DNA of 64,000 nt, from NCBI GenBank assembly GCA_000752215.1, contig CCFG01000005.1, forward strand, positions 162,415 through 226,414, in the 5' to 3' direction. Both the position numbers and the translations under genes were made by a program. Below, piece after piece: positions 31,963-54,010 of the stretch (position 1 is its first letter; every line of letters begins with the position of its first letter). The notes below the pieces were generated by a model. The model saw nothing but the letters and a program-made list of their open reading frames with translations, was not told the origin of the DNA and did no database searches. Origin of the DNA: a bacterium MS4. Its GTDB lineage: Bacteria; Bacillota; Clostridia; Oscillospirales; Acutalibacteraceae.

Positions 31963-31980
31963 AGTTAGCGTAGGCTAACC
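31963..31980. promoter_or_regulatory. GTTAG-N6-CTAAC operator (methyltransferase operon)
   Basis: AGTTAG-CGTAGG-CTAACC. The arms are a perfect inverted repeat with the 6-nt centre shared by the other sites in this window. It is about 100 nt upstream of the first methyltransferase. I infer binding by a DtxR/MntR-family repressor. Confidence 0.8.
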
Positions 31981-32082
31981 ATTAATGGGCGAACAGAAAG
32001 CCACCCGTTTCCCTGGCCGCCATGGCGGAGGGGCACACGAAAAACGCCAACGGAAAGAAAATCAGAAGGAGTGACGACAGGC

Positions 32083-32775
32083 ATGGCACATGAAGAAATC
32101 CGGCAGGCTTATCAGATGCTGGGCCAGGAGGCTACCGCCTACGACGGTATGATCACCTGCTCCACGCTTTTTGGCAGAACCATCTGCAAACTGGTGTGGG
32201 ATATGAACAAGGCGGATAATGACCGCTATCTGCAGCTGGCGCTTGCCGGAATCCGGGAGGACTTTGCCGGAAAGCTTCTGGAAGTTCCCGTAGGTACGGG
32301 CGTACTTACCATGCCGGTATACCAGAAGCTGGCAAATGCGGACGTGACCTGTCTGGACTACTCGACGGAAATGATGGCCACCGCGCAAAAAAGGGCGGAA
32401 AAGTTCGGATTGCAGCAGGTCCGCTTTGTACAGGGCGACGTGGGGGGCCTCCCCTTTGAAAACGGCAGCTTCGACGTCGTATTGTCCCTGAACGGCTTTC
32501 ACGCCTTTCCGGACAAGGGCGCGGCCTATCGCGAAACCTTCCGGGTGCTGAAGCCCGGCGGGATTTTCTGCGGCTGCTTTTATATCCGGGGCGAAACCCG
32601 GCGCACCGATTGGTTTATCCGGCATTTTTACGAACCGAAGGGCTTTTTTACTCCTCCGTTTGAGACGGCGGAAAGCCTGAAAAAACAACTGGAAAATTTC
32701 TACGCAAACGTGACCCTGGATACGGTAAAATCCATGGCCTGCTTTTGCTGCCGCAAGGGGGAATCAAGAAAATGA
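32083..32775 (+). CDS. Class I SAM-dependent methyltransferase 1
   Basis: This 230-aa protein has a Rossmann methyltransferase core. Motif I is LLEVPVGTGVLT, CLDYSTEMMATAQKRAEKFGL provides the adenosine-ribose acidic loop, QGDVGGLPFENGSFDVVLSLNGFHAF is motif II and FRVLKPGGIF is motif III. The style is that of UbiE-like small-molecule methyltransferases. The acceptor is unknown. ATG 32083 lies after AAGGAG. It is the first of three overlapping methyltransferase genes behind a metal-type operator. Confidence 0.88.
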   Translation: MAHEEIRQAYQMLGQEATAYDGMITCSTLFGRTICKLVWDMNKADNDRYLQLALAGIREDFAGKLLEVPVGTGVLTMPVYQKLANADVTCLDYSTEMMATAQKRAEKFGLQQVRFVQGDVGGLPFENGSFDVVLSLNGFHAFPDKGAAYRETFRVLKPGGIFCGCFYIRGETRRTDWFIRHFYEPKGFFTPPFETAESLKKQLENFYANVTLDTVKSMACFCCRKGESRK

Positions 32776-33395
32776 TGAAACGCTTTTTCCAAAACACGCG
32801 AAAACCGGAAGGCTTTCTTGGGCGCATGATGCTCCGCAGCATGAACGGAGGGCATACGCCGCTGTCCACCTGGGGGCTTTCCCTGATTTATCCCGCGCCG
32901 GACGCCCGCGTGCTGGACATTGGCTGCGGCGGGGGCGCGAACATCGCAAGGCTGATGAATCTCTGTCCCCTGGGGTTTGTGGACGGTATCGACTATTCCT
33001 CAGAAAGCGTTGCCTTCAGTCGGAAGAAAAACGCCGCGGACCTTGGCAAACGGTGTGAAATCCGACAAGGGGACGTAGGGGCGCTGCCCTATGCCGACGC
33101 AGCCTTCGATCTGGTGACCGCTTTTGAAACGGTCTATTTCTGGCCTGATCTCGAAAAAGCTTTTGCCGAGGTCCTGCGTGTACTCAAACCCGGAGGGCAG
33201 TTCCTCCTCGTATGCGAAATGGATGATCCGTCCAACACTACCTGGACCGGGCTCATCGACGGGATGACGGTCTATGCCGGCGAGGACCTGAAGGTTCGGC
33301 TGGAACAGGCGGGTTTTGCTCCCGTCCGCCTGTTACGGAACAAAAAGGGCTGGATCGGTCTGCTGGCCGGAAAAGCGGAAGGGGAACTTTCATGA
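32772..33395 (+). CDS. Class I SAM-dependent methyltransferase 2
   Basis: This 207-aa protein has motif I VLDIGCGGGANIARL, an acidic loop GIDYSSESV, then QGDVGALPYADAAFDLVTAFETVYFWPDL and LRVLKPGGQFLL. It overlaps the first methyltransferase gene by ATGA and the third by ATGA, so the three are translationally coupled. It is not a duplicate of gene 1, since motif I and the flanks differ. Acceptor unknown. Confidence 0.9.
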   Translation: MMKRFFQNTRKPEGFLGRMMLRSMNGGHTPLSTWGLSLIYPAPDARVLDIGCGGGANIARLMNLCPLGFVDGIDYSSESVAFSRKKNAADLGKRCEIRQGDVGALPYADAAFDLVTAFETVYFWPDLEKAFAEVLRVLKPGGQFLLVCEMDDPSNTTWTGLIDGMTVYAGEDLKVRLEQAGFAPVRLLRNKKGWIGLLAGKAEGELS

Positions 33396-34186
33396 GAAAG
33401 CAAACAAAAATCGACTATGCAAATTGGATACCGGCAAAGCTGCCGACTACCTTAGGCGTGACCGGCCTCCTGCTGGCCCTGCTGTTCGCCGCCAGCTTCC
33501 TGCCGGCAGCGAACGTTCCCGTTATCATCCTTCGGATTTTTTTCGCTGCCGCGGCGCTTCTGACACTGGCCCTTTTCGGATACATGGCCCGCGCCCGCCG
33601 GCTGCTCTCTTATGAGGGCGGCGGCGTGCAGGGCAAAATTCTGGACAATGTACTGCGCTATCTCGATTGGGACGGGCACGGTACGCTTCTGGATATCGGC
33701 TGCGGCAGCGGTGCGCTGACCATCAAGGCCGCAAAAAAATATCCGGATGCCCGCTGCGTCGGCATGGACTACTGGGGCGCAATGTGGGACTACGCAAAGG
33801 AGCAGTGCGAAACCAACGCGGAGCTGGAAGGGGTCGCAAAACGTACGTCCTTTCAAAAGGGCGACGCAGCGCATCTGGATTTTCCAGACGGGCACTTCGA
33901 TGCCGCGGTAAGCAATTTTGTTTTTCACGAGGTACGCACCCAGCCGGATAAACTGACGCTGATCCGGGAGGCTCTGCGGGTACTGAAGCCCGGCGCGCCC
34001 TTCGCGTTTGAGGATGTATTTTTCTCCCAAAAGAATTATCCGAATTTGAACACGCTGGTGGAAACGCTGTCTAAAGAAGTAACGGAAATCCGCTTCGTGG
34101 ACACCCGGAAGAACAGCTTTGTTCCGAAGCTGCTGCGGACGTCTTTGGTCGCCGGGGAAATGGGACTTATCTGTGGGAAGAAATAA
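33392..34186 (+). CDS. Membrane-anchored class I SAM-dependent methyltransferase 3
   Basis: This 264-aa protein has two hydrophobic N-terminal segments (about 20-65; TLGVTGLLLALLFAASFLPA and VIILRIFFAAAALLTLALFG). A soluble methyltransferase domain follows, with LLDIGCGSGALT, GMDYWGAMWDYAKEQ and LRVLKPGAPFAFED. The anchor would place methylation at the inner face of the membrane. It is the last of three coupled methyltransferase genes. A lipid or membrane-passing small molecule is a possible substrate (inference). Confidence 0.88.
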   Translation: MRKQTKIDYANWIPAKLPTTLGVTGLLLALLFAASFLPAANVPVIILRIFFAAAALLTLALFGYMARARRLLSYEGGGVQGKILDNVLRYLDWDGHGTLLDIGCGSGALTIKAAKKYPDARCVGMDYWGAMWDYAKEQCETNAELEGVAKRTSFQKGDAAHLDFPDGHFDAAVSNFVFHEVRTQPDKLTLIREALRVLKPGAPFAFEDVFFSQKNYPNLNTLVETLSKEVTEIRFVDTRKNSFVPKLLRTSLVAGEMGLICGKK

Positions 34187-34250
34187 AACTCCTGACCTCT
34201 GTTTTTATTTTTGGGAAATCCCTCCTATATTAAAAAGAGAAACTGCTGAC

Positions 34251-34288
34251 AAAAAATACCGCCTGTTTTTTTGCAGGCGGTATTTTTT
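34251..34288. terminator. Bidirectional terminator
   Basis: The 15-bp perfect stem AAAAAATACCGCCTG/CAGGCGGTATTTTTT has an 8-nt loop. It serves both the methyltransferase operon and the convergent MerR gene. Confidence 0.92.
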
Positions 34289-34299
34289 ACTGATGACGC

Positions 34300-35118
34300 T
34301 TATTTCTTTTTCACGGGGTAGCAAACCTCCGTCACCCATTCGTCAGGATTTTGCGTTTCATGAGGGCTGACATGGTAAATGTTGAAGAAAGGCCCGTTAA
34401 AATCGTAACCGTTATCGCGAACCCAATTGGCAACAGCCTCACTGACTCCGTCGATTTTGTCATAGCCTCCCTTGTAGGTGGCTGAAGCGATCAAAACAGG
34501 CGGCTCGGTTTTGAACACCACATGCTCGGTGTTCGGGTAGCTGCCCCGCACGGATTTCTGAACTTCCACGTCCACGTCGGTTTCCTTGTACTCTGCATCG
34601 TGGAAAATCGCCAGCGTGTAGCAGGGCTCGCCGTCCTGCATGTTCAACGGGGCGGTTTCTTTCATGAGGACATGCCAGAGCCTGCCCTCGTAGTCATATG
34701 CGGGAATGATCTGTCGGACGCTGGCAACATAGCGTTCAGGCAGCGTTTTTAAAGTTACATTGTAACTCATCGCGGTTCCATCCTTTCTCAGCCGTTTAAT
34801 GGCTGTTTCAAGGAGCAGCAGACGGTGCGCGGTTAACTCGGCCTCTGCTTTTACTTCGGTTTGCTTTACGGACAAAAACTCCGCCAGCTTTTGCGGATCA
34901 TTGTAAATTTTCAGAATTTCCCCTATAACGGACAGGCCGAACCCCATATCCTTGAGACAATTAATCCGACCGGCCACAGGGAGCTGATCCTCGCCATAAT
35001 AGCGGTAGCCAGTAAAAGAATCGATACTTTTGGGCACCAGCAGGCCGATTTCGTCGTAATGCCGCAGCATCCGAATGCTGATCCTTGACAGTTTAGAAAA
35101 ATCACCTATTTTCAGCAT
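34300..35118 (-). CDS. MerR-family regulator with C-terminal GyrI-like domain
   Basis: This 272-aa protein has an N-terminal MerR DNA-binding domain (KIGDFSKLSRISIRMLRHYDEIGLL, DQLPVAGRINCLKDMGFGLSVIGEIL), a coiled coil and a GyrI-like effector-binding domain. The latter includes TLKTLPERYVASVRQIIPAY and ATYKGGYDKIDGVSEAVANWV. The layout is that of BmrR/BltR multidrug-sensing activators. A MerR-type promoter with a 19-nt spacer lies upstream, suggesting autoregulation. No efflux gene is adjacent. Confidence 0.9.
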   Translation of the reverse strand: MLKIGDFSKLSRISIRMLRHYDEIGLLVPKSIDSFTGYRYYGEDQLPVAGRINCLKDMGFGLSVIGEILKIYNDPQKLAEFLSVKQTEVKAEAELTAHRLLLLETAIKRLRKDGTAMSYNVTLKTLPERYVASVRQIIPAYDYEGRLWHVLMKETAPLNMQDGEPCYTLAIFHDAEYKETDVDVEVQKSVRGSYPNTEHVVFKTEPPVLIASATYKGGYDKIDGVSEAVANWVRDNGYDFNGPFFNIYHVSPHETQNPDEWVTEVCYPVKKK

Positions 35119-35158
35119 GATAGATCCCTCACACATGTGTTTTTTCGAGCTCAGTTAC

Positions 35159-35189
35159 AGTATAGAGTATACCATAATGGGAGAGTCAA
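35159..35189 (-). promoter_or_regulatory. MerR-type promoter (19-nt spacer)
   Basis: On the minus strand TTGACT (35189-35184) and TATACT (35164-35159) flank a 19-nt spacer, as in MerR-regulated promoters. It would drive the MerR-GyrI gene itself. Confidence 0.7.
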
Positions 35190-35225
35190 TAGGCAATTTG
35201 CATTTTATCCGCCGCGGCTTACAAT

Positions 35226-36113
35226 TTATCTTTCCGTTCTTTTATGGCGTCTTTTCGCCTCATACATTTTTTTGTCGGCCAGCTTGATGATCTCCTCCGC
35301 CGTTAAGCCGGAGTCCGGCATTGTTACCACTCCCTGTGATACCGTAATGCCAATATCGCTGCCCTGTATGGGGAACGCCGCTTTATCAAAGTCCTGATAA
35401 ATCCGCTGTGAAACGCGGTGCGCCTCTTCGCTGCCGGTATTGTTCAGGCAGATCACGAACTCGTCGCCGCCGTAGCGGGCCGCCCAGTCCGTCTCGTTCC
35501 TGATGCATTTCTGGATCGTTCCCGCCGCGAATTTTAAAATCTGGTCTCCGGCCGCATGACCGAAGGTGTCGTTGACCGTCTTCATATTATCAATATCGAT
35601 GAAAATAACCGACAACGGCTTCTGGCCCACCATCGCGCCGACAATATCGGCAGGCAGACGGTCGTCCAGAAACCGGCGGTTATATAGAGACGTCAGCTCG
35701 TCCCGGATGACCATATCGTTGATATCCCTGACCGCGTTAAACAGCACCTGACCCTTATTGTATTCGCCTGTGCCGATCATCATGGTATCCGTCGCATTTT
35801 TCAGAATTTCCAGCACCACGGGGTGTTCCTCGGAGTCGATTGGCAGGGCAGTGACCAGCATAATCACATCGGGGCTGTGCTCCAGCTTCATAAAGCTCTT
35901 CTGTTCCCGGTGCGCCCTGATCGACACGCAGTTTTCACAGATGCGCCCGCTGCTCCAATAGGCGTAACACGCCTCGCACGTTTCGGCCGTACCGTTATTG
36001 CGGTATTCCATAACCCTTTTCCGCACGGGGTCCACAAGACGGACCGCATCATACATTTTGTGAAAAAAGTCCAAGTTCGCCTGCAGTTTGTCCAGCGTAA
36101 TTTTTTCGGTCAT
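35226..36113 (-). CDS. GGDEF diguanylate cyclase with N-terminal Cys-rich sensor
   Basis: This 295-aa protein has a C-terminal GGDEF domain with RYGGDEF, FIDIDNMKTVND and DELTSLYNRRFLDDRL, so it should make cyclic di-GMP. The upstream residues read NETD rather than R-x-x-D, so the inhibitory I-site is absent. The N-terminal 150 residues contain C-E-A-C...C-E-N-C, a possible metal or iron-sulfur site. No membrane segment is seen. ATG 36113 follows AAGGAGAG. Confidence 0.9.
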   Translation of the reverse strand: MTEKITLDKLQANLDFFHKMYDAVRLVDPVRKRVMEYRNNGTAETCEACYAYWSSGRICENCVSIRAHREQKSFMKLEHSPDVIMLVTALPIDSEEHPVVLEILKNATDTMMIGTGEYNKGQVLFNAVRDINDMVIRDELTSLYNRRFLDDRLPADIVGAMVGQKPLSVIFIDIDNMKTVNDTFGHAAGDQILKFAAGTIQKCIRNETDWAARYGGDEFVICLNNTGSEEAHRVSQRIYQDFDKAAFPIQGSDIGITVSQGVVTMPDSGLTAEEIIKLADKKMYEAKRRHKRTER

Positions 36114-36300: not shown

Positions 36301-36648
36301 TTAATTTTGCTGAAATACGGAAAAGTCCCCCAGCGCAAGCGCCGGGTCAATCCGCACGCAGCCCTCCGTGTCCACACAGGCCGTCATATATTCAAAATGC
36401 TTTGCATCCAGCGGGTTCCCGCTGGATTGAGCCACTTTGCTTGCATATTCCAGGTCGTCGGCCAGAACAAACAAATAGACATACATGGACCCGTTTTCCA
36501 CACTGGTAAAATAAATTTCCAGATGCTCCTTTTCATTTTTCAGCGTTTCATTGCCCGCCTCCTTGTTTTCCTTTAGAAATTCGAGCCACTCCCGCGCAAG
36601 GTCTTCCTTTCCGGATTTAATTTTCACGCGCCATAAAACAATGTCCAT
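36301..36648 (-). CDS. DUF6176-like small protein under metal-type operator
   Basis: This 115-aa protein has an alpha+beta ferredoxin-like pattern (MDIVLWRVKIKSGKEDLAREWLEFLKEN, then EIYFTSVENGSMYVYLF). It resembles DUF6176 proteins, a relative of the dimeric alpha/beta-barrel fold used by monooxygenases. No function is established. A sigma-A promoter (36736-36708) and a GTTAG-N6-CTAAC operator directly downstream of its -10 show tight repression, implying a role in the metal response. Confidence 0.75.
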   Translation of the reverse strand: MDIVLWRVKIKSGKEDLAREWLEFLKENKEAGNETLKNEKEHLEIYFTSVENGSMYVYLFVLADDLEYASKVAQSSGNPLDAKHFEYMTACVDTEGCVRIDPALALGDFSVFQQN

Positions 36649-36687: not shown

Positions 36688-36736
36688 GGTTAGTCATCAC
36701 TAACCTAATCATACAGGAACCACCGCCTTAAGTCAA
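36688..36736 (-). promoter_or_regulatory. Promoter and GTTAG-N6-CTAAC operator of the DUF6176 gene
   Basis: On the minus strand TTGACT (36736-36731) and TATGAT (36713-36708) are 17 nt apart. The operator GGTTAG-TCATCA-CTAACC (36688-36705 on the plus strand) starts 2 nt after the -10, covering the start point. The rest of 36737-37016 shows no gene. Confidence 0.85.
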
Positions 36737-37016: not shown

Positions 37017-37042
37017 GGTTGGTTAGCTAAGGCTAACCAACC
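37017..37042. promoter_or_regulatory. GTTAG-N6-CTAAC operator of the ECF module (longest arms)
   Basis: The 10-bp arms GGTTGGTTAG and CTAACCAACC flank CTAAGG. It is the most extended copy of the family and sits 20 nt before the ECF S-component start codon, within the leader. Confidence 0.88.
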
Positions 37043-37062: not shown

Positions 37063-37668
37063 ATGGCTTCAAACAACTTAAACAGAGGGCTGACAGGAAA
37101 GGATCTCATTACGGTGGGAATCTTCTCCGCCCTTTACTTCGTCATTAACTTTATCTTCATGTTGCTGGGCGGACTGCATCCTTTAATCTGGATCCTGATG
37201 CCCGGTTTCATCGCCTTGTTTTCGGGGATTCCCTTTATGCTGATGTGCGCCAAGGTACAGAAGCCCTGGGCCGTACTGCTGATGGGCATTATCACCGGTC
37301 TTATTTATTTTGTAACGGGTCAGTTCACAGTGGTGATTCTTGTAACGTTCGTCATTTCCTGCGCTCTGGCGGAGCTCGCCCGCGCCGTTACCAAATACGG
37401 GAGCTTTCAGGGAAACACGGCGGCTTTCGTGCTGTTTTCGCTTGGTATGACGGGATCGCCGCTTCCCCTCTGGCTGATGCGGGACAGCTTCCTTTCCCAG
37501 ATTTCCTCGCAGGGAATCCCGGCGGACTACCTTGAAACCCTGAAAGCCGTTTCCTCGCCCGCCATGCTGATCGTCCTTTTTGCGGCGCCTGTTGTCGGCG
37601 CGATATTCGGCGCTTACATTACCAGAGGCATGTTTAAAAAGCACTTTGTCAAGGCGGGCATCGTTTGA
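37063..37668 (+). CDS. ECF transporter S component, MptD/Trep_Strep family
   Basis: This 201-aa integral membrane protein has about six hydrophobic segments and a Lys-rich C-terminus. It matches the MptD/Trep_Strep group of putative ECF substrate-binding subunits (DLITVGIFSALYFVINFIFML). It would capture a ligand and associate with the EcfT/EcfAA module encoded next. Such S components occur beside siderophore or heme loci in Firmicutes; ligand here unknown. ATG follows GGGGG and a metal-type operator. Confidence 0.85.
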   Translation: MASNNLNRGLTGKDLITVGIFSALYFVINFIFMLLGGLHPLIWILMPGFIALFSGIPFMLMCAKVQKPWAVLLMGIITGLIYFVTGQFTVVILVTFVISCALAELARAVTKYGSFQGNTAAFVLFSLGMTGSPLPLWLMRDSFLSQISSQGIPADYLETLKAVSSPAMLIVLFAAPVVGAIFGAYITRGMFKKHFVKAGIV

Positions 37669-37670
37669 GC

Positions 37671-38339
37671 ATGCAAAAACATCTGCGAATCGATCCCCGC
37701 ACCGGGCTGCTTCTGCTGGTGATGTCCAACATCATCGCGTTCACACAGAACTCCTTTTCGGTCGAAACCGGCTGGATTCTTTTCCTCTGTCTGCTGGCGG
37801 CTTTCTGCGGCTGCGGCAGGGCGGCCGCCCGATGGCTGCTGGCCTTCTGCCTGCTTCTGGGCCTTCAATACTACGTGTTCCCGGTATCCGCGAAGATCAT
37901 CGCCACCAGCTTTTCCATTTTTGCGAATTACACGCGAAGAATGTTCCCCTGCCTGATCGTCGGTATGCTGATGGTAAAAAAGACGCCGCTTCGGGACCTG
38001 ATCGTGGGGCTGAGGAAATGGCATTTCCCGCAGAAGCTGATCGTGGCGGTATCGGTGACCCTGCGCTACTTTCCCGCGATCCGTGAAGAAGCCGGATACA
38101 TACGCGACGCCATGAAGCTTCGGAAGATTCACGGGCTGCAGAAAGTGGAATGTCTGGTCATTCCTTTGATGATCTCGGCGACCGGCACTGCGGAAGAGCT
38201 CGCGGCGGCGGCGGTGACACGCGGGATTGAAAACCCCGCTCCCAAAACAAGCGTGGTGGAGCTCCGCCTGACCGCGGCGGACGGAGCGTGTATTCTGGCC
38301 GGGGTTCTCTTCACCGCCGCTTCCTGCCTGATCAGATGA
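37671..38339 (+). CDS. ECF transporter T component (EcfT)
   Basis: This 222-aa membrane protein has the EcfT coupling helices and the basic motif region (LRKWHFPQKLIVAVSVTLRYFPAIREEA and a late AAAVTRGIENPA). The usual Ala-Arg-Gly signatures correspond to the IRDAMKLRK and TRG elements. It links the S subunit to the ATPase. I use ATG 37671, although a TTG at 37665 overlapping the upstream stop is nearer to AAGGCGGG and equally plausible. Confidence 0.88.
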   Translation: MQKHLRIDPRTGLLLLVMSNIIAFTQNSFSVETGWILFLCLLAAFCGCGRAAARWLLAFCLLLGLQYYVFPVSAKIIATSFSIFANYTRRMFPCLIVGMLMVKKTPLRDLIVGLRKWHFPQKLIVAVSVTLRYFPAIREEAGYIRDAMKLRKIHGLQKVECLVIPLMISATGTAEELAAAAVTRGIENPAPKTSVVELRLTAADGACILAGVLFTAASCLIR

Positions 38340-38352
38340 AAGGAGGTGCTTT

Positions 38353-39750
38353 ATGATTTCCATTGAGGACGTATCTTTCGGCTACTCCGGAGAGCACGGC
38401 ACGCTTCACGATGTTACCCTGAAAATACGGGACGGCGAGTGTATTCTGCTCTGCGGAGAATCGGGATGCGGAAAAACGACGGTCACCAAGCTGATGAACG
38501 GGCTGGTCCCGCATTTTACAGACGGCTGCGCGCTGGAAGGCAGAGTATCCGCCGAAGGCCTTGCGGTGGCCGAAACAGAGCTTTACGAGCTTGCAAAGCG
38601 GGTGGGCTCTGTTTTTCAGAACCCCAAAAGCCAGTTTTTCAACCTTGATTCCGACAGCGAGCTGGCTTTCGGTCTGGAAAATCAGGGAGCCGCGCCGGAT
38701 TTCATACGAACACGGCTGAAGGAAACCGTCCGGAACCTGCGGATGGAAGCCCTTCAGGGCAGAAGCATCTTCTCGATGTCGGGAGGGGAAAAGCAAATGC
38801 TGGCCTTCGCCTCCGTTTACGCCATGGACCCGGCGGTGTTCGTGCTGGACGAACCGACCGCGAACCTTGACGAGGATGCGGTCAAACGCCTGCGGGAGCA
38901 GCTTCGGTTTTTAAAGCGGCAGGGCCATACCGTGGTCATTGCCGAGCACCGCCTGTGGTTTCTGGACGGCCTGATCGACCGGGCGGTTTTCCTGAAAAAC
39001 GGGAGAATTGAGCGGAGCTTTTCCGGCGGGGAATTTTTTTCCCTGCCGGAAAGGGAACGGATCGATATGGGACTGAGGGCGCTGACGCCGCCGGACGGTG
39101 CGCTGCCCCCCGCCCTGCCCTGCGGCGCGGCGCGGGGGCTGTCGGTGGAAGGGCTTGCCTGCGGCTTTGGAAAAGGCGAGCCGGTGCTCCGGGCGCTTTC
39201 CTTTTCAGCGATCCCCGGGGAAATTCTGGCGGTCTCCGGAAAAAACGGAATCGGCAAAACCACCTTGACCCGGTGCCTGTGCGGACTGATGCGCGAACGC
39301 GCGGGAACCGTGCGGCTGAACGGCAGGCGGCTGAACCGGAAACAGCGGGCGAAAGCCGCCTTCTGCGTCATGCAGGACGTGAATCACCAGCTTTTTTCGG
39401 ACAGCGTATTTGGAGAGTGCCTGCTGGCTGCCCCGGGATGCACAGACGAGCGGGTAAAGGAAGTCCTGAACCGGTTTGACCTGCTGCCGTTTCAGGAAAA
39501 GCATCCGATGGCGCTTTCCGGCGGACAGAAGCAGCGGCTCGCCATAGCGACCGCCGTGCTTTCCGGCAAAGAGCTTCTGATCTTCGACGAGCCCACCAGC
39601 GGACTGGATTACGCGCACATGATGGAGGTGTCGTCCGTTGTCAGGCGATTGGCAGACGAAGGGCGCGTCGTACTCATCGTGACCCACGACAGAGAATTTC
39701 TCCGCTGCGCCTGTGACAGGGAGCTGGAACTCAGGGAGGAGGGCTTATAA
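38353..39750 (+). CDS. ECF transporter ATPase, fused A-A' (tandem ABC)
   Basis: This 465-aa protein carries two ABC domains. The first has GESGCGKTT, the signature MSGGEKQMLAFASV and VFVLDEPTANLD. The second has SGKNGIGKTT, LSGGQKQRLAIATAV and LLIFDEPTSGLD. Two fused nucleotide-binding domains replace separate EcfA1 and EcfA2. It powers the S-T complex. AAGGAGG precedes ATG 38353. The gene is followed 1 nt later by an AraC gene. Confidence 0.92.
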   Translation: MISIEDVSFGYSGEHGTLHDVTLKIRDGECILLCGESGCGKTTVTKLMNGLVPHFTDGCALEGRVSAEGLAVAETELYELAKRVGSVFQNPKSQFFNLDSDSELAFGLENQGAAPDFIRTRLKETVRNLRMEALQGRSIFSMSGGEKQMLAFASVYAMDPAVFVLDEPTANLDEDAVKRLREQLRFLKRQGHTVVIAEHRLWFLDGLIDRAVFLKNGRIERSFSGGEFFSLPERERIDMGLRALTPPDGALPPALPCGAARGLSVEGLACGFGKGEPVLRALSFSAIPGEILAVSGKNGIGKTTLTRCLCGLMRERAGTVRLNGRRLNRKQRAKAAFCVMQDVNHQLFSDSVFGECLLAAPGCTDERVKEVLNRFDLLPFQEKHPMALSGGQKQRLAIATAVLSGKELLIFDEPTSGLDYAHMMEVSSVVRRLADEGRVVLIVTHDREFLRCACDRELELREEGL

Positions 39751-45721: not shown

Positions 45722-47455
45722 TCAGGCCAGCTTCCAGCCGATCGCCTCTCTGCGGGCATTGAGAAATTCGGAATAGATGCCGGGCTGCCCCGCCAGTTCC
45801 TTATGAGTTCCCCTCTGTACGATTTTCCCGCCGTCCAGAACCAGAATCTGCTCGGCCTTCTCCACCGTTTTCAGGCGGTGCGCAATCATGATAATCGTTT
45901 TGTTGTGCGTCAGCGCGTCGATGGCTTTCTGCAGCTCGGCCTCGTTTTCCGGGTCTACGTTGGCGGTCGCCTCGTCCAGAATGACGATCGGCGCGTCCTT
46001 CAGCATGGCCCTGGCGATGGAAATCCGCTGCTTCTCCCCGCCCGAAAGGGAGCAGCCACCCTCGCCGACCATGGAACCGTAGCCCTGCGGGAGCGCGGAA
46101 ATGAACTCGTCACAGCAGGCCGCTTTCGCTGCGGTGACCACCTGTTCCTGCGTCGCGTCCGGCTTTCCGAATTTGATATTATTTTCAATCGTATCGTTAA
46201 AAAGGTAGACGTCCTGAAAGACCATGGCGATATTTCTCATCAGGCTGTCCAGCTTATATTCCCGCACATCGTGGCCGCCGACGGTGATGGAGCCGCTGTC
46301 CACATCCCAGAAACGGGCGATCAGGCTGCACAGCGTGGTTTTTCCGCCGCCGGACGGGCCGACGACCGCCGTCGTGGTTTTTTCCGGGATGGTCAGGCTG
46401 ACGCCGTCCAGAACCTTCCGGTCCCCATAGGAAAAGCCGACGTCCCGGAACACGATGCCGGAGGCTTTCGGGGCCAGCTCCCTGCCCTCGGTATCCATCG
46501 TCGGCGTATCGTCAACGGAATTGGCCTTTTCCATAGAGGCATCCATCATCTGCAGCACGGAGGCCATATTTCCGGCGGATTCCAGCTCGCTGTAAACCAT
46601 AAAGGAGGCGATAAGCAGCAGCAGGCAGTTTACCAGCGGCAGTTCCCCGTTCAGGTAGAACGCCAGCGTAGCGGTCAGGATGGCGATGCTCGCGACGCGG
46701 ATCACCGCCCCCTTCAGGATATCCCACGGAATGACGTTCCGCGTAACCGCCAGATTCCGGGCACAGCTTTCATCAATGGATTTGCGAATTTCCTGATCGC
46801 CGTCGTTTTCCAGCCCAAAGGCTTTGACCACGCTCATGCCCTGTAGGTATTCCATCACGGCGGAAACCAGGCTTTCCTGTGCCCTCTGGCGTTTCGGAAA
46901 GCTTTTTGAAACACCGCGCTGCGCCGCCTCGGTCGCCAGCAGATAGACGGCCATGCCCGCTAAAACAATCAGCCCGATGCGCCGGTCGATCACGCACATG
47001 CCGAGACCCAGCGCGACGGAGGTGAGAAGCCCGCCCAGAATGCTCACCATGCACCGGGCGGCGGAGTTTTCCACATCCCCCAACGTTGTGGTGACCACCC
47101 CGGTAATATTGCCAAGGCTGTTTTGATTGAAATACCCCATTGGGATATAGCGCAGGCGGTCCCCGATATGGATACGTTTATCCGATACCATAAAATAGCC
47201 GATCTGCGTCTGCTGCATATTGGAGAAGAAGGAAGCGGCGGCTTTTCCAGCGATCGAGACCAGCATGACGACCAGCGCGGTCCAAGCGGTTTTCGCGTCC
47301 CGGTTTCCCGTTGTCAGCGCCTGCAGCACCAAAAGCAGCGCATAAAACTGCAGCGCGGAGAATGCCGAGCCGACAAAGGAAACCGCAATGGATCTCCACA
47401 TCTGCCCCCGGCGTTCGCCGGAAAAAGCGGCAATTTTTTGAAATACATGAAACAT
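45722..47455 (-). CDS. ABC transporter half, YbtQ/IrtB-like (second of pair 2)
   Basis: This 577-aa protein has a six-helix membrane domain plus ATPase. Walker A is GPSGGGKTT, the signature LSGGEKQRISIARAMLKD and Walker B IVILDEATANVDPENE. It is most similar within this window to the 42606-44354 product, including the ending EAIGWKLA versus SAEGWKIT. It pairs with the gene 15 nt upstream. The tail-to-tail arrangement around yaaA suggests an ancient duplication of the transporter pair. Confidence 0.88.
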   Translation of the reverse strand: MFHVFQKIAAFSGERRGQMWRSIAVSFVGSAFSALQFYALLLVLQALTTGNRDAKTAWTALVVMLVSIAGKAAASFFSNMQQTQIGYFMVSDKRIHIGDRLRYIPMGYFNQNSLGNITGVVTTTLGDVENSAARCMVSILGGLLTSVALGLGMCVIDRRIGLIVLAGMAVYLLATEAAQRGVSKSFPKRQRAQESLVSAVMEYLQGMSVVKAFGLENDGDQEIRKSIDESCARNLAVTRNVIPWDILKGAVIRVASIAILTATLAFYLNGELPLVNCLLLLIASFMVYSELESAGNMASVLQMMDASMEKANSVDDTPTMDTEGRELAPKASGIVFRDVGFSYGDRKVLDGVSLTIPEKTTTAVVGPSGGGKTTLCSLIARFWDVDSGSITVGGHDVREYKLDSLMRNIAMVFQDVYLFNDTIENNIKFGKPDATQEQVVTAAKAACCDEFISALPQGYGSMVGEGGCSLSGGEKQRISIARAMLKDAPIVILDEATANVDPENEAELQKAIDALTHNKTIIMIAHRLKTVEKAEQILVLDGGKIVQRGTHKELAGQPGIYSEFLNARREAIGWKLA

Positions 47456-47470
47456 TTTTTATCTCCTCCC

Positions 47471-49237
47471 TCAGCCCTGATCCCGGGCGCCTATATGCGC
47501 CGCCCACATTCCGGCGTAAAGGGGACAGTCCCGAAGCAGCTCTTCCTGTGTGCCCTGCGCCGCAATCCGTCCCTTCTGAACCACGACGATGTTGTCGGCG
47601 TCGGTGATGGTGGACAGCCGGTGGGCAATGACGATCAGCGTTTTCCCCTTTGTCAGGGCAGAAATCGCCTTCTGGATAGCGGCTTCGTTCTCGGGGTCGA
47701 TGGAGGAAGTGGCTTCGTCCAGAATCACGACCGGCGCGTCCTTGAGCATTGCGCGGGCAATCACGACGCGCTGGCGTTCCCCGCCCGAAAGACGGCTTCC
47801 GCCGCTGCCGACGACCGTGTCAAAGCCGTTTTCCAGCCGGCGGATAAATTCCCCGCAGCCGGCCGCCGCTGCCACGGCTTCCACCTCCGCGTCCGTCGCG
47901 CCTTTGTGTCCCATGCGGATATTTTCCCGCACCGACCGGTCAAAAAGATAATTATCCTGTGAAACATAGGCGATCTGCTCCGTCCACTGCCGCAGGGGGA
48001 TTTTTCGCAAATCCGTTCCGTTGGCGCTGATTCCGCCGCCCGTCACGTCCCAGAAGCCCGCGATCAGCTTGGCAATGGTGGACTTTCCCGAACCGGAGGG
48101 CCCGACCAGCGCCGTCACCGTGCCGGGACGGATTTTGAGATTGACTTCGTGAAGCACCTCTTCATTATCCTTGCCGTAGGAGAACGAAACGTCCCTGAGC
48201 GCAATCTCCGGATTTTTCAGCCTGACCGGCGTCTGCGGGCGCTCCAGCTCGGGGGACTCCAGAATCGCTGAAATTTCCGCCACATTGGAGGAGACGACCG
48301 CCAGATCGTCTATAAAGGTCATCGCCGCCATGATCGGCCCGGTCAGGCCCAGGGACAGCACGATGATGGTCAGAAAGCTTTCGACGGAAAGGCTGCCGCC
48401 CGCCCAGAAGGCAAAGCCAGCCGGCAGCACGGACACCAGCACGGCCGGAATCACAGCTCCCCACGCGCACATGTACTTCAGGTTGTCGCCGAACCAGTCG
48501 ACATAATACTGTCCGTTCGCCCTGACCGCGTCGGCGTATTTCCGGTAGGAACCGGCGGACTGGCTGAACGCCTTGACGACCTGAATCCCGCCGACATACT
48601 CCACAATGGCGTTATTCATCCGCCGCCCGGTTTCCACCGCCCCGGCCCAGCGCTTGGCATAGGTTTTTCCGCTCTGCGACACAAGGAAAAGGCCGATCAC
48701 CAGCGTAATCAAGGAAATCAGCGCCATGCGCCAGTCGAGGACCAGCAGGTAAACAAAGATGGCGACGGGCACCAGCGCGTTGGAGGTCAGCTCCGGAATC
48801 AGATGGGCAAGGGTGGGCTCCATCCCCTCTACACGGTCCACAATGGTGGTTTTGTACTGGCCGGAGGGTGTGTCCAGCACCGTACCCATCGGAACCCTTG
48901 CCAGCTTCGCGGTCAGCGCCTTGCGCAGGTCGCGCAGGGTGCGATAGGTCGCGGTATGGGAAATCAGGGTCGACAGGCTGCCGAAGACCACCTTGCCGAG
49001 ATACCCGGCAAGGGCGACCCCGCACCACATCAGGCAGGAATTCCAATCCGCGCGCCCCGACAGCAGCAGCCCGATCACGGACGCCGCGCAAAAATAGGGT
49101 ACCATCCCGCCGGCTACCCCCAGAACCGCCAGAACCACGGAGCCGACGAAGCTTCCGCGATAGGGCGCGGCCCAGCCCCACAGTCTGGCGGCGGCACCGG
49201 GTCCTTTTTTCTCTTTTTCTTCTTTCACAACAAACAT
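47471..49237 (-). CDS. ABC transporter half, YbtP/IrtA-like (first of pair 2)
   Basis: This 588-aa protein has a six-helix membrane domain and an ATPase with GPSGSGKST, LSGGERQRVVIARAMLKD and VVILDEATSSIDPENE. The C-terminus MWAAHIGARDQG parallels MWKAHIGAKAW of the first half in pair 1, showing paralogy. The start at 49237 lies 8 nt from a GTTAG-N6-CTAAC operator, with AGGAGA between. It is expected to import a metal chelate with the downstream half. Confidence 0.88.
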   Translation of the reverse strand: MFVVKEEKEKKGPGAAARLWGWAAPYRGSFVGSVVLAVLGVAGGMVPYFCAASVIGLLLSGRADWNSCLMWCGVALAGYLGKVVFGSLSTLISHTATYRTLRDLRKALTAKLARVPMGTVLDTPSGQYKTTIVDRVEGMEPTLAHLIPELTSNALVPVAIFVYLLVLDWRMALISLITLVIGLFLVSQSGKTYAKRWAGAVETGRRMNNAIVEYVGGIQVVKAFSQSAGSYRKYADAVRANGQYYVDWFGDNLKYMCAWGAVIPAVLVSVLPAGFAFWAGGSLSVESFLTIIVLSLGLTGPIMAAMTFIDDLAVVSSNVAEISAILESPELERPQTPVRLKNPEIALRDVSFSYGKDNEEVLHEVNLKIRPGTVTALVGPSGSGKSTIAKLIAGFWDVTGGGISANGTDLRKIPLRQWTEQIAYVSQDNYLFDRSVRENIRMGHKGATDAEVEAVAAAAGCGEFIRRLENGFDTVVGSGGSRLSGGERQRVVIARAMLKDAPVVILDEATSSIDPENEAAIQKAISALTKGKTLIVIAHRLSTITDADNIVVVQKGRIAAQGTQEELLRDCPLYAGMWAAHIGARDQG

Positions 49238-49244
49238 CTCCTTT

Positions 49245-49262
49245 AGTTAGCTATAGCTAACT
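49245..49262. promoter_or_regulatory. GTTAG-N6-CTAAC operator of ABC pair 2
   Basis: AGTTAG-CTATAG-CTAACT, a perfect palindrome including the centre. It sits between the TetR gene and the start of the first ABC half, in the immediate leader of the latter. Confidence 0.85.
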
Positions 49263-50040: not shown

Positions 50041-50054
50041 CCCAAGCCTTAAAA

Positions 50055-51281
50055 TTACTTCAGTCCGTCCAGACCAGCGGTGTTTTTGTCGCCCCCAACC
50101 AGAGGAGCTCCCTTTCTGCCGCCGACCGTCATGTCGCTGGTGCAGCTGTCCTCCACCTTGGAATTGCTGTAAACGTACCCGGCGATCGTACCGGTCAGAG
50201 AACCTGCGCTGATACTTCCCGTGCTTGTACAGTCGCTGACCACAAATGCGTTCGGTTCGGGGCGATCTTTCTTGTACGCCTGCATGAAGAACCCGCTTCC
50301 GACGATGCCGCCGATTCTCTCTGCGCTGGCCGGCGCGGTGATGTCCGCTTTTACCGTACAGCCGCTGATCGCCGTCGGCGTCTTGGCATCATTTCCCGCG
50401 TGACCGAGCAGTCCGCCGATCATGCTGCAGTTTTCCCCGACGGTCATTTTCACGTCTACGGTGCAGTCCTTCACTTCCGGCGCCGCCTGCCCGCAGGCCG
50501 CAAGCCCGCCGATCGAGTAGCTGCCGCTGCCCGTCACGGTGACCGAACCCGTCGCGGAGCAGGAGACGATGGAGCTCTCCTCCATACCGCCGGCAAGCAC
50601 GCCGATTCCCTGCGCGTTGTCCCCGTTCAGCGTGACATCGGCGTTTGCCTTACAGTTTTTAATATCGCAGAAGCCGCCCCCCACGATTCCGCCGACCAGA
50701 AAGTTTCCGGCAACGCTGTTTGTACCCTGAAGCGTAATGTTTTCCACCGGTTTTTTGGAAACCCCGTAGCCGATGACGCCGCCGACCAGCATATTGCCGG
50801 AGACTTTGACGTTTTCGACCACCAGATCGGTCACGGACCCGTTTTCACCCGCCACGCATCCGAAAATGCCGACACCGCTTTGTTTTTCAGCCGACACGGC
50901 AACATTGGAAATTTTATGTCCGTTCCCGTTAAATACTCCGGTGAAAGCCGCGGTGAGGTCCGGCGCTTCTTCGTCCTCTTTTGAGGCGGGCTCAAAATGC
51001 CCGATGGACTCAAATTCTTCATAGGACGCCAGATCGATATCGGCATTCAATGTATAACAGCCGTCCAGATGCTCTCTGACCGCGTCGAGCTGCTGTGCGG
51101 TTTCGATCACCCAGGGGGATTCCTGCGTTCCGCTGCCTCCCGCAAATTTTCCTGCTTCCGAGGAAACAGAAGCGGCGGACGCCGCCGGGGCGCTGCTTCC
51201 CTCCGGGCTGGAGCAGCCGGAAAAGCAAAGGGCAAACAGCATGACCATGCTTACAGCAATCAGTGATATTCTTTTTCTCAA
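50055..51281 (-). CDS. Surface lipoprotein with GLUG-type repeats
   Basis: This 408-aa precursor begins with a signal peptide ending in a lipobox (LFALCFSGC), so it is anchored outside the cell. Residues from about 90 on form glycine-rich beta-repeats of the GLUG type (SGNMLVGGVIGYG, AGNFLVGGIVGGGFCDIKNCKA, SIGGLAACG, IGGIVGSGFF), likely a beta-solenoid. Cysteines recur once per repeat. TTG 51281 is nine bases after AGGAGG. A metal-type operator lies 36 nt upstream, so it is predicted to be induced by metal limitation. Function unknown. Confidence 0.85.
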   Translation of the reverse strand: MRKRISLIAVSMVMLFALCFSGCSSPEGSSAPAASAASVSSEAGKFAGGSGTQESPWVIETAQQLDAVREHLDGCYTLNADIDLASYEEFESIGHFEPASKEDEEAPDLTAAFTGVFNGNGHKISNVAVSAEKQSGVGIFGCVAGENGSVTDLVVENVKVSGNMLVGGVIGYGVSKKPVENITLQGTNSVAGNFLVGGIVGGGFCDIKNCKANADVTLNGDNAQGIGVLAGGMEESSIVSCSATGSVTVTGSGSYSIGGLAACGQAAPEVKDCTVDVKMTVGENCSMIGGLLGHAGNDAKTPTAISGCTVKADITAPASAERIGGIVGSGFFMQAYKKDRPEPNAFVVSDCTSTGSISAGSLTGTIAGYVYSNSKVEDSCTSDMTVGGRKGAPLVGGDKNTAGLDGLK

Positions 51282-51315
51282 GTTTCATATCCTCCTATAT
51301 TTAAGAATAGTTTTT

Positions 51316-51333
51316 AGTTAGCATATGCTAACC
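51316..51333. promoter_or_regulatory. GTTAG-N6-CTAAC operator of the GLUG lipoprotein gene
   Basis: AGTTAG-CATATG-CTAACC. Perfect arms and the same 6-nt spacing as the other sites. It lies between the lipoprotein start and the AraC gene end. Confidence 0.87.
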
Positions 51334-51360
51334 ATTATCTATTGTAACACGGGAGGAATT

Positions 51361-52560
51361 TCAAAGGTTATTCCGATCGGACGCCGGATATCCTTTCCGG
51401 ACAAAATTCTTTCTGTATTCGGAGGGGGAAAGCGAAGCGGTCTGCTTAAAGGCGGCTGAAAATTTGGCGGGGCTGTCGTAGCCCACCTGCCACGCGATTT
51501 CCGCGACGCCCAGCTCTGTTTCCCGCAGCATGGCAGCGGCGGTGTGCAGCCGGTAATCGCGCAGATAAGTATAGATCGGGGAGCCCCACACGCTTTTAAA
51601 GCATTGTTTCATCGAGGTCAGGGGGATGTGAAACTGTTCGGAGAGCTCGGTCAGCGTAAAACGCCGGGACAGATTTTCCGTCAGGTACCGGCGGATTTCT
51701 TTGACGGTTTCGATCTGCTCTTTTCGGAAATACCTGCATCTGCGCTGTTCGCAATCCGTGTTCGCGGCGCTGAGAAACAGGATCAGTTCTATGACCTTCA
51801 GTTTGATGTAAGGACACATCAGGCACTCCGGGGCACGGTAGAGCTCGGAAAAAATATGCTGGATGGAATCCGTCGCGCGAAGAATGCAGCAGCTGTTTTC
51901 CGGACACAGCTTATTTTGGAGGGCGTGCAGGTCCAGCGTATCGCTGCCAAGGATTTTGGAAACATCCTCGATTGGTTTGGAAGCCCGCTCGATATCAATG
52001 ATAATCGATATCCCCTGATAGTGCGAAAGAGGGAAGCAGGACGTCTTCGGCTGATTCCACAGCATATTGACAGCCAGGTCCCCGCTTCCCAGATAAGCGA
52101 ATTCATTGTTTTGGAACTCACACTCGAACCGGCCCTCGCGGCAATGGTTGATTTCCATAATGTCGGAGCTTACGGGGACGCGGTGGTCAAACTTTTCAGA
52201 AAGACAAAAGTCGTTATAAAACAGCTCGATTCCCGGCAGGACTTCATATTTGGTAATACTCCCGCTGGCGGGGTCGTCCCTGAGCTGATAGACCACGCAC
52301 TCCTTTTTCCGGAGCAGAAGCTTCGTCCTGTCCCCGTACAGTTCGATATTTGTTCGTATTTCCGTATCACCGCGGCAGTTTTTCTTCCTCTTTCTCCCAT
52401 GTCTGGCGTCCGGGGGCTTACAGGTACCGGCGGGAATCGCCCAGGCGCGCCCGAAGCGGACCGCGCCGCCGACCCTGCCCTGCCCGCAAAGCTTCTGTAT
52501 TCTTCGCTCCGAAACGCCCCATTGCAGCGCCGCGCTTTTGACGGAAACATAATCCGGCAT
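51361..52560 (-). CDS. AraC-family regulator with an extra N-terminal excisionase-type HTH
   Basis: This 399-aa protein joins an N-terminal helix-turn-helix (about 1-50; VKSAALQWGVSERRIQKLCGQGRV, then AWAIPAG) to a YbtA-like ligand domain (MEINHCREGRFECEF) and a C-terminal AraC domain (LTELSEQFHIPLTSMKQCFKSVWG, VAEIAWQVGYDSPAKFSAAFKQTA). The second half is paralogous to the AraC at 39752. ATG 52560 follows GGAGG. It likely senses a siderophore or related ligand and controls nearby transport genes. Confidence 0.87.
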   Translation of the reverse strand: MPDYVSVKSAALQWGVSERRIQKLCGQGRVGGAVRFGRAWAIPAGTCKPPDARHGRKRKKNCRGDTEIRTNIELYGDRTKLLLRKKECVVYQLRDDPASGSITKYEVLPGIELFYNDFCLSEKFDHRVPVSSDIMEINHCREGRFECEFQNNEFAYLGSGDLAVNMLWNQPKTSCFPLSHYQGISIIIDIERASKPIEDVSKILGSDTLDLHALQNKLCPENSCCILRATDSIQHIFSELYRAPECLMCPYIKLKVIELILFLSAANTDCEQRRCRYFRKEQIETVKEIRRYLTENLSRRFTLTELSEQFHIPLTSMKQCFKSVWGSPIYTYLRDYRLHTAAAMLRETELGVAEIAWQVGYDSPAKFSAAFKQTASLSPSEYRKNFVRKGYPASDRNNL

Positions 52561-52617
52561 ATCACACCACCTCCCAAACCGTTCTTGCGTTTCACGCGCG
52601 GGCAAGACGGATTTCCG

Positions 52618-52995
52618 TCAGCGGCCGGAGGCTTTTCCGTCCACATGCCTGCGAATCGCCTCAAAGCTGGCCGCACTCAGGTCATGTTCGATCTTACACG
52701 CATCCTTGCGGGCCGTTTCCGCATCCACCCCCAGATTCATCAGCAAATCCGTCAGCAGGCGGTGCCTTTCATAAATCCGGGATGCGATCTCCATCCCGGA
52801 TTCCGTCAGTGTGATGAGACTCTCCTTATCCATGGTAATGTACCCGTTTTCGCGCAGCCGTTTCGTCGCGACCGACACGCTCGGTTTTTTTACCCCCAGT
52901 TTCTCTGCGATATCGACGGAGCGGATGTAGCCGTGATCCTCCTTCAGCATCAGCATTGTTTCAAGATAATCCTCGGCAGATTCCCTGATCTCCAT
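52618..52995 (-). CDS. DtxR/MntR-family metal-dependent regulator (short form)
   Basis: This 125-aa protein has the DtxR winged helix (YLETMLMLKEDHGYIRSVDIAEKLGVKKPSVSVATKRL) and a dimerisation domain, but no SH3/FeoA domain. Candidate metal ligands are Asp9 and Glu12 (MntR-like), the His of YERHRLL and the C-x-x-E-H of DACKIEHDLS (DtxR-like Cys). This mixed set leaves Fe or Mn open. ATG 52995 follows AGGAGG. A GTTAG-N6-CTAAC site covers its own promoter, so it is the best candidate repressor for that operator family. Confidence 0.88.
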   Translation of the reverse strand: MEIRESAEDYLETMLMLKEDHGYIRSVDIAEKLGVKKPSVSVATKRLRENGYITMDKESLITLTESGMEIASRIYERHRLLTDLLMNLGVDAETARKDACKIEHDLSAASFEAIRRHVDGKASGR

Positions 52996-53171
52996 AGAAC
53001 ATGACCTCCTTCTGTTTTCTGTATCTTTCATAGTGTGATTTCTTTTATCGGCGGCAACACAGCGCCCTTGTGAAATACGGAATTCCGATACCCCTGCCGC
53101 AAGCCGGAGTACTCCGACTTTTTGCGCCCTTTTGCAAGCTGTCCTTATAACAGCTCCGCGCTGCAAGCGTC

Positions 53172-53220
53172 GGTTAGATTCAACTAACACAAATATATCA
53201 CAAAACCAAAAAAAGAGCAA
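53172..53220 (-). promoter_or_regulatory. Promoter and GTTAG-N6-CTAAC operator of the short DtxR gene
   Basis: On the minus strand TTGCTC (53220-53215) and TATATT (53197-53192) are 17 nt apart. GGTTAG-ATTCAA-CTAACA (53172-53189 on the plus strand) lies just after the -10. This arrangement implies autoregulation. Confidence 0.75.
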
Positions 53221-53374
53221 CCGGAGCGAGGCACAAGACAGGAAACGCAAGAAAATGCAGGCCGTGAAAACGGGGCTTGACAAGGACCCGCAAAAATGTT
53301 ACTCTTTTTTTGCGACCAAAATATAAATAACGGTCGTATAATTTTAAAAAACAGTCTTGCTTGGGAGGAATAAA

Positions 53375-53971
53375 ATGTCCCCTAAAAAATTCGACTGGCA
53401 GAAACGGGAAGAAATCCGCGTTCAGATGCTGGAAGCCGGCTATGAGCTGATTCGGCAATACGGCATGACCCATACCTCAGTGGAAAAGGTGGCCGAAGCC
53501 GTGGGGCTGGGAAAAAGCACGTTCTATAATTTCTTTCCCAGCAAGGAACGTTTTGTCTATGAGATCATCGTTTCTATGCGCTCGCAGCTGATGGAGTATT
53601 TTGAACAGCTTCTGGCCGGGCGGGAGAAGCTGCCGGTACCGCTGGCAAAGGAATTCCTGAAAAAAATTATTTTCAGCGAACGCAGCATCTACAAATATCT
53701 AACATCGGAGGACGAAGAAAAGCTGCGCGCCGCCCTTCCGCCCGAGTACTTTCTCGATGTGGAACAGGAGTCCCGGGTCATGGTCCGGCTGTTCGGGCGT
53801 ATGGAAGGAATCCGCGCCGATATGGACGAACATCTGGTGGGCAATCTGCTGAAGATCATGGCTCTGGCCCAAATCAATCAGGCCGAGCTTCACGCCGACG
53901 CGCTGGAACGCACCCTGGACAAACTGTATGAACTGCTGTTTTCCTGTATCTTTGAAGAGGGCAGGCATTGA
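53375..53971 (+). CDS. TetR-family regulator
   Basis: This 198-aa protein has a TetR helix-turn-helix (MTHTSVEKVAEAVGLGKSTFYNFFPSKERF) and a helical effector domain. ATG 53375 follows GGGAGG. It is divergent from the short DtxR gene. A CGACC...GGTCG pair (53313-53335) upstream might be its operator but the promoter is not clear. The alpha/beta hydrolase and membrane genes follow on the same strand. Confidence 0.88.
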   Translation: MSPKKFDWQKREEIRVQMLEAGYELIRQYGMTHTSVEKVAEAVGLGKSTFYNFFPSKERFVYEIIVSMRSQLMEYFEQLLAGREKLPVPLAKEFLKKIIFSERSIYKYLTSEDEEKLRAALPPEYFLDVEQESRVMVRLFGRMEGIRADMDEHLVGNLLKIMALAQINQAELHADALERTLDKLYELLFSCIFEEGRH

Positions 53972-53994
53972 GCCGCCTGCTTCTTTGCACAGAA

Positions 53995-54010
53995 GTTATT
54001 TAAAACTAAC
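53995..54010. promoter_or_regulatory. Imperfect GTTAG-N6-CTAAC site before the hydrolase gene
   Basis: GTTAT-TTAAAA-CTAAC has the right spacing and one mismatch in the left arm. It precedes the interspersed repeat and the hydrolase gene. Confidence 0.45.

What the first reader, a model, noticed from the sequence alone, without database searches (positions are those of the whole stretch)
31963..54010. A seven-site operator family, GTTAG-N6-CTAAC, defines a metal-type regulon
Six sites with perfect arms and identical 6-nt spacing lie at 31963-31980, 36688-36705, 37021-37038, 49245-49262, 51316-51333 and 53172-53189. A seventh has one mismatch (53995-54010). Each is upstream of a gene: the methyltransferase operon, DUF6176, the ECF transporter, ABC pair 2, the GLUG lipoprotein, the short DtxR/MntR regulator and the hydrolase. 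At the DUF6176 and DtxR genes it directly follows the -10. The half-site resembles the DtxR/IdeR half-site (GGTTAG), but the spacing differs from the classical 1-nt centre. The regulator at 52618-52995 is the natural candidate, since it carries the site at its own promoter. The operator spacing and the set of genes, including several unknown ones, may be undescribed.
Basis: partly seen in the sequence, partly recalled or inferred. Interest (0 to 1): 0.85.

Follow-up and report, generated by a model that had tools for sequence, protein, structure and literature searches.

The report
Iron-type DtxR regulon in Clostridia
The repeated DNA sign GTTAG-N6-CTAAC is very probably the landing site of a small iron-sensing repressor family that switches off iron uptake genes in many gut Clostridia, and in this genome it also stands before a spare ribosomal protein that has lost its metal-binding cysteines.

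Summary
By my gene choices all 18 lie between genes, before a start. The seventh, mismatched site is at chance level. Outside this cluster the sites precede two feoAB loci, a flavodoxin pair, ABC and ECF importers and enolase. In related genomes the site often lies between feoB-feoA-feoA and a divergent short DtxR-family gene (34 of 42 such genes). The regulator keeps the MntR ligand places but with the iron-type cysteine. Best reading: a large clostridial iron regulon of a known kind, not described in the papers my searches listed. Most novel reading: iron control of a cysteine-poor uS4 paralogue (one genome only).

The parts
31964..31979 (.). operator GTTAG-N6-CTAAC before the methyltransferase genes (32071 onward)
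   Evidence: no fitting promoter found at this site
36689..36704 (.). operator directly after the -10 of the DUF6176 gene (minus strand)
   Evidence: -10 TATGAT begins 9 nt before the operator
37022..37037 (.). operator 26 nt before the ECF S gene
   Evidence: no fitting promoter found at this site
49246..49261 (.). operator before the ABC transporter pair (minus strand)
   Evidence: also present before this pair in G157 (L161)
51317..51332 (.). operator 36 nt before the GLUG lipoprotein gene (minus strand)
   Evidence: no perfect site at the GLUG gene of G157 (L161)
53173..53188 (.). operator 178 nt before the short DtxR gene, after a -10-like TATATT (minus strand)
53995..54010 (.). one-mismatch site before the hydrolase gene; not above chance, left out of the regulon
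52618..52995 (-). short (125 aa) SH3-less DtxR-family regulator, Reg_C
   Evidence: PF01325, PF02742; MntR chain 1.7e-16, ligand places; ligands
32071..34186 (+). three SAM methyltransferase genes, putative target
   Evidence: the middle one scanned; first and third found at 97% and 95% with a site in G157
36301..36648 (-). DUF6176 gene, putative target
   Evidence: PF19673 1.1e-26
37063..39750 (+). ECF importer genes: S (MptD/Trep_Strep family), T (by place and reading) and double ATPase, putative target
45722..49237 (-). pair of ABC permease-ATPase genes, putative target
   Evidence: first gene scanned
50055..51281 (-). GLUG-repeat lipoprotein gene, putative target
   Evidence: PF07581

Best explanation
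GTTAG-N6-CTAAC is the operator for one dimer of a short, SH3-less DtxR-family metal repressor of the EqbA type. With enough Fe(II) (perhaps also Mn(II)) the metallated dimer sits on the operator, often at or just after the -10 box, and blocks transcription; when iron is short it lets go, and ferrous iron uptake (feoAB), putative chelate and ECF importers, flavodoxin and other genes are expressed. Shown by computation: enrichment, fixed spacing, position before genes, the targets, conserved ligand residues, and a divergent feo / regulator arrangement in many genomes. Inferred: binding, one dimer per site, the metal, repression, and which paralogue acts here. In this genome the core regulator is more likely the paralogue on contig C15, found in relatives that have sites but lack Reg_C, with Reg_C a second member of the same broad clade on the same operators.
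For: 18 perfect sites in the genome vs 1 of the reversed pattern, all before a start by my gene choices. Targets: two feoAB loci, DUF3793-flavodoxin, three ABC pairs, two ECF sets, enolase, uS4 and others. In 80 named loci (best 80 of 238) around Reg_C relatives: 57 sites in 747 kb against 3 for twelve other spacings together; 24 of 80 have a site within 400 nt upstream (7 loci hold 400 nt or less). Of 149 regulator rows, 34 of 42 that diverge from feo genes have the site upstream, and 6 of 107 others. Family: 116 of 121 genomes with a strong Reg_C-like protein have a site, 13 of 29 others. Ligand places as in MntR but Cys for Glu99; Cys in 115 of 116 Reg_C-type rows. Published one-dimer spacing of IdeR (PMC8464063); EqbA palindrome, Fe/Zn/Mn-responsive EMSA and 13-fold derepression on deletion (PMC3672683). 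In 10 of 18 sites a -10-like box begins 9-18 nt before the operator.
Against: No binding or expression data for any clostridial member. The reversed control pattern also tracks the regulator in the family comparison (88 of 121 vs 9 of 29), so genome size and quality explain part of that correlation, and the strong/weak cut was chosen after seeing the table. 109 of 149 regulator rows have no perfect site upstream. Five of the 10 relatives in the genus have no more sites than control matches, though sites of two of these (G151, G155) precede feoA. In 8 of 18 sites no promoter was found with the operator at the -10. 10 of 18 sites overlap some mechanical ORF of 60 aa or more that I judged spurious or over-extended. 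PgMntR with Asp and Cys at these places binds Mn too (PMC4805248, passages). EqbA's sequence was not on hand. Three Fur-family proteins are also encoded.
Confidence: 0.87

Rival explanations
1. Reg_C at 52618-52995 alone is the regulator of the whole regulon.
For: It carries a site at its own predicted promoter, and close kin of it sit next to feo operators elsewhere.
Against: All 11 genomes of the genus have at least one site, but only G000, G158 (72%) and G153 (54%) have a match above 50% identity. G157 has 11 sites without it, while the C15 paralogue is 98% identical there and 81-94% in the four other relatives fetched for it (L121 93%; L173, L176, L180).
Confidence: 0.15
2. A Fur-family protein (Fur, Zur or PerR) uses this operator.
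For: Three Fur-family proteins are encoded in the genome; feo and flavodoxin are common Fur targets (recalled).
Against: The operator has a DtxR half-site and spacing, contains the same core as the EqbA palindrome, and lies upstream of 40 of 149 DtxR-family rows.
Confidence: 0.05
3. The metal is manganese rather than iron: an MntR-like Mn regulon.
For: Closest named families are MntR; an Nramp gene lies by the feo locus, and in G158 sites lie before Nramp (L171).
Against: feoAB twice, flavodoxin, and Cys at the place of MntR Glu99; EqbA with the same Cys answers to Fe, Zn and less fully to Mn.
Confidence: 0.15

Closest known systems
EqbA of Streptococcus equi ICESe2 (PMC3672683; passages read)
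   Same: SH3-less DtxR-family repressor with the iron-type Cys; its 36-bp palindrome contains GTTAGATGTATCTAAC; controls iron acquisition; EMSA shows Fe2+-, Zn2+- and Mn2+-responsive binding.
   Different: Reported for one siderophore operon on a mobile element; here 18 sites with feoAB, flavodoxin, ECF and other genes. EqbA has Asn where Reg_C has Asp (Asn in 16 of 116 Reg_C-type rows and in the C15 paralogue).
IdeR/DtxR of Actinobacteria (PMC8464063; passages read)
   Same: Winged-helix dimer; one dimer spans TTAG-N6-CTAA; one-dimer sites shown for IdeR.
   Different: Usual operator is 19 bp for two dimers on opposite faces; half-site TTAGG, whereas here G at that place is rare (0.04 of 308 half-sites from 154 distinct sites, C 0.45); IdeR/DtxR have an SH3-like domain.
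MntR of Bacillus subtilis and E. coli
   Same: No SH3 domain; five of six ligand places.
   Different: Glu99 is Cys here; targets are mainly iron genes.

Membership tests
DtxR/MntR metalloregulators | N-terminal winged helix plus metal-binding/dimerisation domain | tested here: met
   PF01325 1.1e-14 and PF02742 9.5e-14; MntR chain 1.7e-16
DtxR/MntR metalloregulators | metal ligand set | tested here: met
   D9, E12, H78, C100, E103, H104
DtxR/IdeR proper (two-dimer, SH3) | C-terminal SH3-like domain | tested here: not met
   125 aa, no third domain found
DtxR/IdeR proper (two-dimer, SH3) | 19-bp operator TTAGGTTAGSCTAACCTAA | tested here: not met
   sites are single 16-mers; GTTAG-N1-CTAAC 0 times in 747 kb
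EqbA-type regulators | SH3-less with iron-type Cys | tested here: met
   EqbA features
EqbA-type regulators | operator with GTTAG-N6-CTAAC core | tested here: met
EqbA-type regulators | sequence orthology to EqbA | not tested
   EqbA sequence not on hand
EqbA-type regulators | Fe-dependent DNA binding | not testable with these tools
   needs EMSA
MntR | Glu at position 99 | tested here: not met
   Cys
MntR | NCBIfam equivalog cut-off | tested here: not met
   102.9 bits against 153 (scanned as the 221-aa open frame)

The most novel reading that the evidence does not exclude
The iron regulon swaps a ribosomal protein. The genome keeps the normal uS4 with cysteines 9, 12, 26, 31 (next to S11 and the RNA polymerase alpha gene) and a second uS4 that has lost this set (only C12 and C20) and carries a perfect operator 49 nt before its start. 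Since the uS4 cysteine finger is published to hold an Fe4S4 cluster in a 70S structure, iron shortage would switch to a cluster-free uS4 and spare iron, a counterpart of the known zinc-controlled ribosomal protein swaps.
Probability: 0.3. Interest if true: 0.78.

Novelty: new member of a known kind. Interest (0 to 1): 0.52.

Why it matters
It joins a single streptococcal precedent (EqbA) to a feo-linked repressor clade found across many clostridial genomes and gives a strict motif with which iron regulons of uncultured gut bacteria can be read from sequence. It also offers a direct test of an open point: what controls the cysteine-free uS4 paralogues of Clostridia, for which a 2009 study found no Zur site and asked for experiments (PMC3087516, passages).

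Tried and rejected
Seventh site: rejected as chance level. Reg_F, the DtxR-like gene after feoB (L010), as the sensor: rejected; in the 10 rows classed with it every ligand letter at the six places is replaced, save one Cys. Reversed pattern as a control at one mismatch: it has more matches (65 vs 25 in all), so its words are commoner; I rely on shuffles and on other spacings instead. Operator before cysteine-poor uS4 genes elsewhere: 35 of 394 order-level genomes, G000 included, have a match at 1e-50; 30 came as loci; of the 29 from other genomes none has a perfect site in the 400 nt upstream. In the 11 of these whose upstream letters I printed the gene follows what reads as an S11 end, so they look like main copies and the test says little on paralogues; stand-alone paralogues of lower similarity were not searched for. 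Fur boxes before the uS4 genes of the same 41 loci (genus and order): best match 4 or more mismatches in each; on average nearer than shuffles (5.4 vs 6.1 mismatches in the 40 rows labelled C-), but the C+/C- labels of that call are wrong for L182-L192 because of start-codon picking (one search has them right). A repeat-element pattern search of the genome found nothing. Structure prediction was not run, since sequence matches to solved DtxR and MntR chains were clear.
Full report
THE OBSERVATION. GTTAGNNNNNNCTAAC occurs six times in the 64-kb window, at 31964, 36689, 37022, 49246, 51317 and 53173; 100 dinucleotide shuffles gave none. With one mismatch allowed only 53995 is added, where shuffles give 0.67 in all. 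In the whole genome (3.74 Mb, 17 contigs) there are 18 perfect sites and one match of the reversed pattern. Seven one-mismatch sites exist; of the six outside the window three lie inside predicted genes. The seventh site is therefore not supported.

WHERE THE 18 SITES LIE. By my gene choices all 18 lie between genes and before a start, 9 to 178 nt away. 10 of the 18 overlap some mechanical ORF of 60 aa or more, which I judged spurious or over-extended, for example frames antisense to enolase or to the ABC genes. Targets outside the window: feoA-feoB on C10; on C17 a site before feoA and one before feoB of a feoA-feoA-feoB locus, and a third before the divergent DUF3793-flavodoxin pair; an ECF S-T-ATPase set (S by Pfam); two ABC pairs (first genes by Pfam); a methyltransferase like the one at 33392; a DUF998-like membrane protein (below the Pfam cut-off); enolase and a second uS4; and at C16 a gene cut by the contig end with no Pfam match, which I read as AraC-like because the matching site of relative G157 precedes an AraC homologue (L166). 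By the same comparison C15:71129 and C16:983 look like two ends of one ABC-AraC cluster. Ferrous iron uptake and flavodoxin point to iron.

PROMOTER GEOMETRY. In 10 of 18 sites the best promoter-like pair has its -10 beginning 9 to 18 nt before the operator; shuffled flanks reach these scores in 0.00 to 0.14 of trials. This fits a repressor at the transcription start. In the other eight no such placement was found; at the uS4 gene a strong promoter lies upstream and the operator falls about 33 nt past its -10.

RELATIVES. Of 150 genomes of the family, 129 have at least one perfect site, 554 sites in all against 225 of the control pattern. A protein like the window's short regulator is found in 132 of 150. 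Genomes with a strong match (best E 1e-25 or lower, a cut I chose after seeing the table) have a site in 116 of 121 cases, the others in 13 of 29 (Fisher 6e-10); the control pattern also differs (88 of 121 against 9 of 29, 6e-5), so size and quality of genomes confound part of this. More telling are 80 loci with record titles (the best 80 of 238 matches): 57 perfect sites in 747 kb, and for spacings 0-5 and 7-12 together three. In 24 of the 80 a site lies within 400 nt upstream of the regulator; 46 of the 80 loci have no perfect site at all. A common layout is feoB-feoA-feoA, site or sites, divergent regulator, sometimes with a further site before feoB. Among 149 regulator rows from the loci held, 34 of the 42 that diverge from feo genes have the site in the 450 nt upstream, against 6 of the other 107.

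THE REGULATOR. The product of 52618-52995 has the DNA-binding and the metal/dimerisation domain and no further one was found. Against B. subtilis MntR it keeps Asp, Glu, His, Glu and His at the ligand places and has Cys in place of Glu99. Among 116 rows closest to it the Cys stands in 115; the Asp place is Asp in 96 and Asn in 16 (140 of 142 rows used, two duplicates dropped). Cys at this place is the iron-type ligand of DtxR, though PgMntR with Asp and Cys also binds Mn (PMC4805248, passages).

WHICH PARALOGUE. The genome has seven PF01325 matches over the cut-off, one of them MarR-like by my reading (L017). All 11 genomes of the genus have a site, though in five of the ten relatives no more than control matches; a match to Reg_C above 50% identity exists in G000, G158 and G153 only. 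G157 has 11 sites, and the ABC, TetR, first and third methyltransferase genes of this cluster at 95-98% (GLUG pieces 88 and 97%), with sites before the ABC pair and the methyltransferases but none at GLUG, and no Reg_C; the paralogue at G000 C15:28827 is 98% identical there. Hence that paralogue is the more likely core regulator, and Reg_C an additional one. Against this, no perfect site lies upstream of the C15 paralogue or its nearest kin: its starred set of eight rows has none. Reg_C groups with four regulators of other lineages (76-80% identical) and with that of G158 (72%). The tree has few columns and many open forks; both paralogues lie in one set of 130 rows with support 92, not starred.

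WHAT IS KNOWN. In the IdeR-DNA structure each subunit binds one of four CCTAA repeats, one dimer on repeats 1 and 3; the authors show one-dimer binding and propose TTAGGNNNNCCTAA (PMC8464063, passages). That is TTAG-N6-CTAA, the spacing seen here. EqbA of Streptococcus equi lacks the SH3 domain, has the iron-type Cys, and binds a promoter with a 36-bp palindrome that contains GTTAGATGTATCTAAC; deletion raised eqbE transcript 13-fold, and EMSA answered to Fe, Zn and less fully Mn (PMC3672683, passages). So the operator is not new. My searches (titles and abstract starts seen) listed no paper that by its title describes such a clostridial regulon, in a library that lacks most subscription journals.

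THE uS4 GENE. The gene at L006:5373-5966 is a uS4 (NCBIfam, 233.5 bits). The genome's other uS4 has Cys 9, 12, 26, 31 and stands by S11 and the alpha subunit gene; the operator-bearing copy has Cys 12 and 20 only in its first 45 residues and a shortened N-terminus. The 10 other genomes of the genus have one match each, and all 10 are the four-Cys form, so the second copy is special to this genome. In a bacterial 70S structure (Thermus, recalled) an Fe4S4 cluster is bound to the uS4 finger (PMC6555806, passages). A study of 660 genomes found cysteine-free uS4 paralogues mainly in Clostridia, no Zur site before them, and asked for work on their regulation; it also notes up-regulation during sporulation in two species (PMC3087516, passages). 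Of 29 uS4 loci from other genomes of the order none has the operator, but those printed look like main copies. An iron-controlled swap is thus possible but rests on one genome; zinc or sporulation roles are not excluded.

VERDICT. A real regulon, most likely of an iron-type DtxR repressor of the EqbA sort, wide in Clostridia; spacing not new; regulator assignment corrected; one bold lead in uS4.

Noticed in passing
L010:11707-12108 (G000 C17): A DtxR-like gene after feoB has lost the metal ligands; so have nearly all places in the 10 rows classed with it. It may be a metal-free winged-helix partner of Feo.
   Followed up: partly
window 55434-56204 and 56544-58763: A second DtxR-family regulator with a C-terminal FeoA domain stands by another feoB-like gene (by reading); no perfect GTTAG-N6-CTAAC site lies near them.
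   Followed up: no
L007:4720-6000; L164; L172: Enolase has the operator before it in three genomes of the genus (G000, G157, G158), an odd target for an iron repressor.
   Followed up: partly
window 54045-54079; L009:907-941; L161:1423-1457: An inverted repeat ACGTTCCTCCCCCGCC-N3-GGCGGGGGAGGAACGT lies near the mismatched site, near the C16 site, and in the matching cluster of G157; perhaps a small repeat element.
   Followed up: partly
window 32071-34186; L001:6118-6912: Three methyltransferases in a row, with a lone relative elsewhere that has its own operator; a role in metal chelate chemistry is possible but untested.
   Followed up: no
L107 (5404-5763 and 5896-6402): Two DtxR-like genes diverge with a single operator between them.
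   Followed up: no
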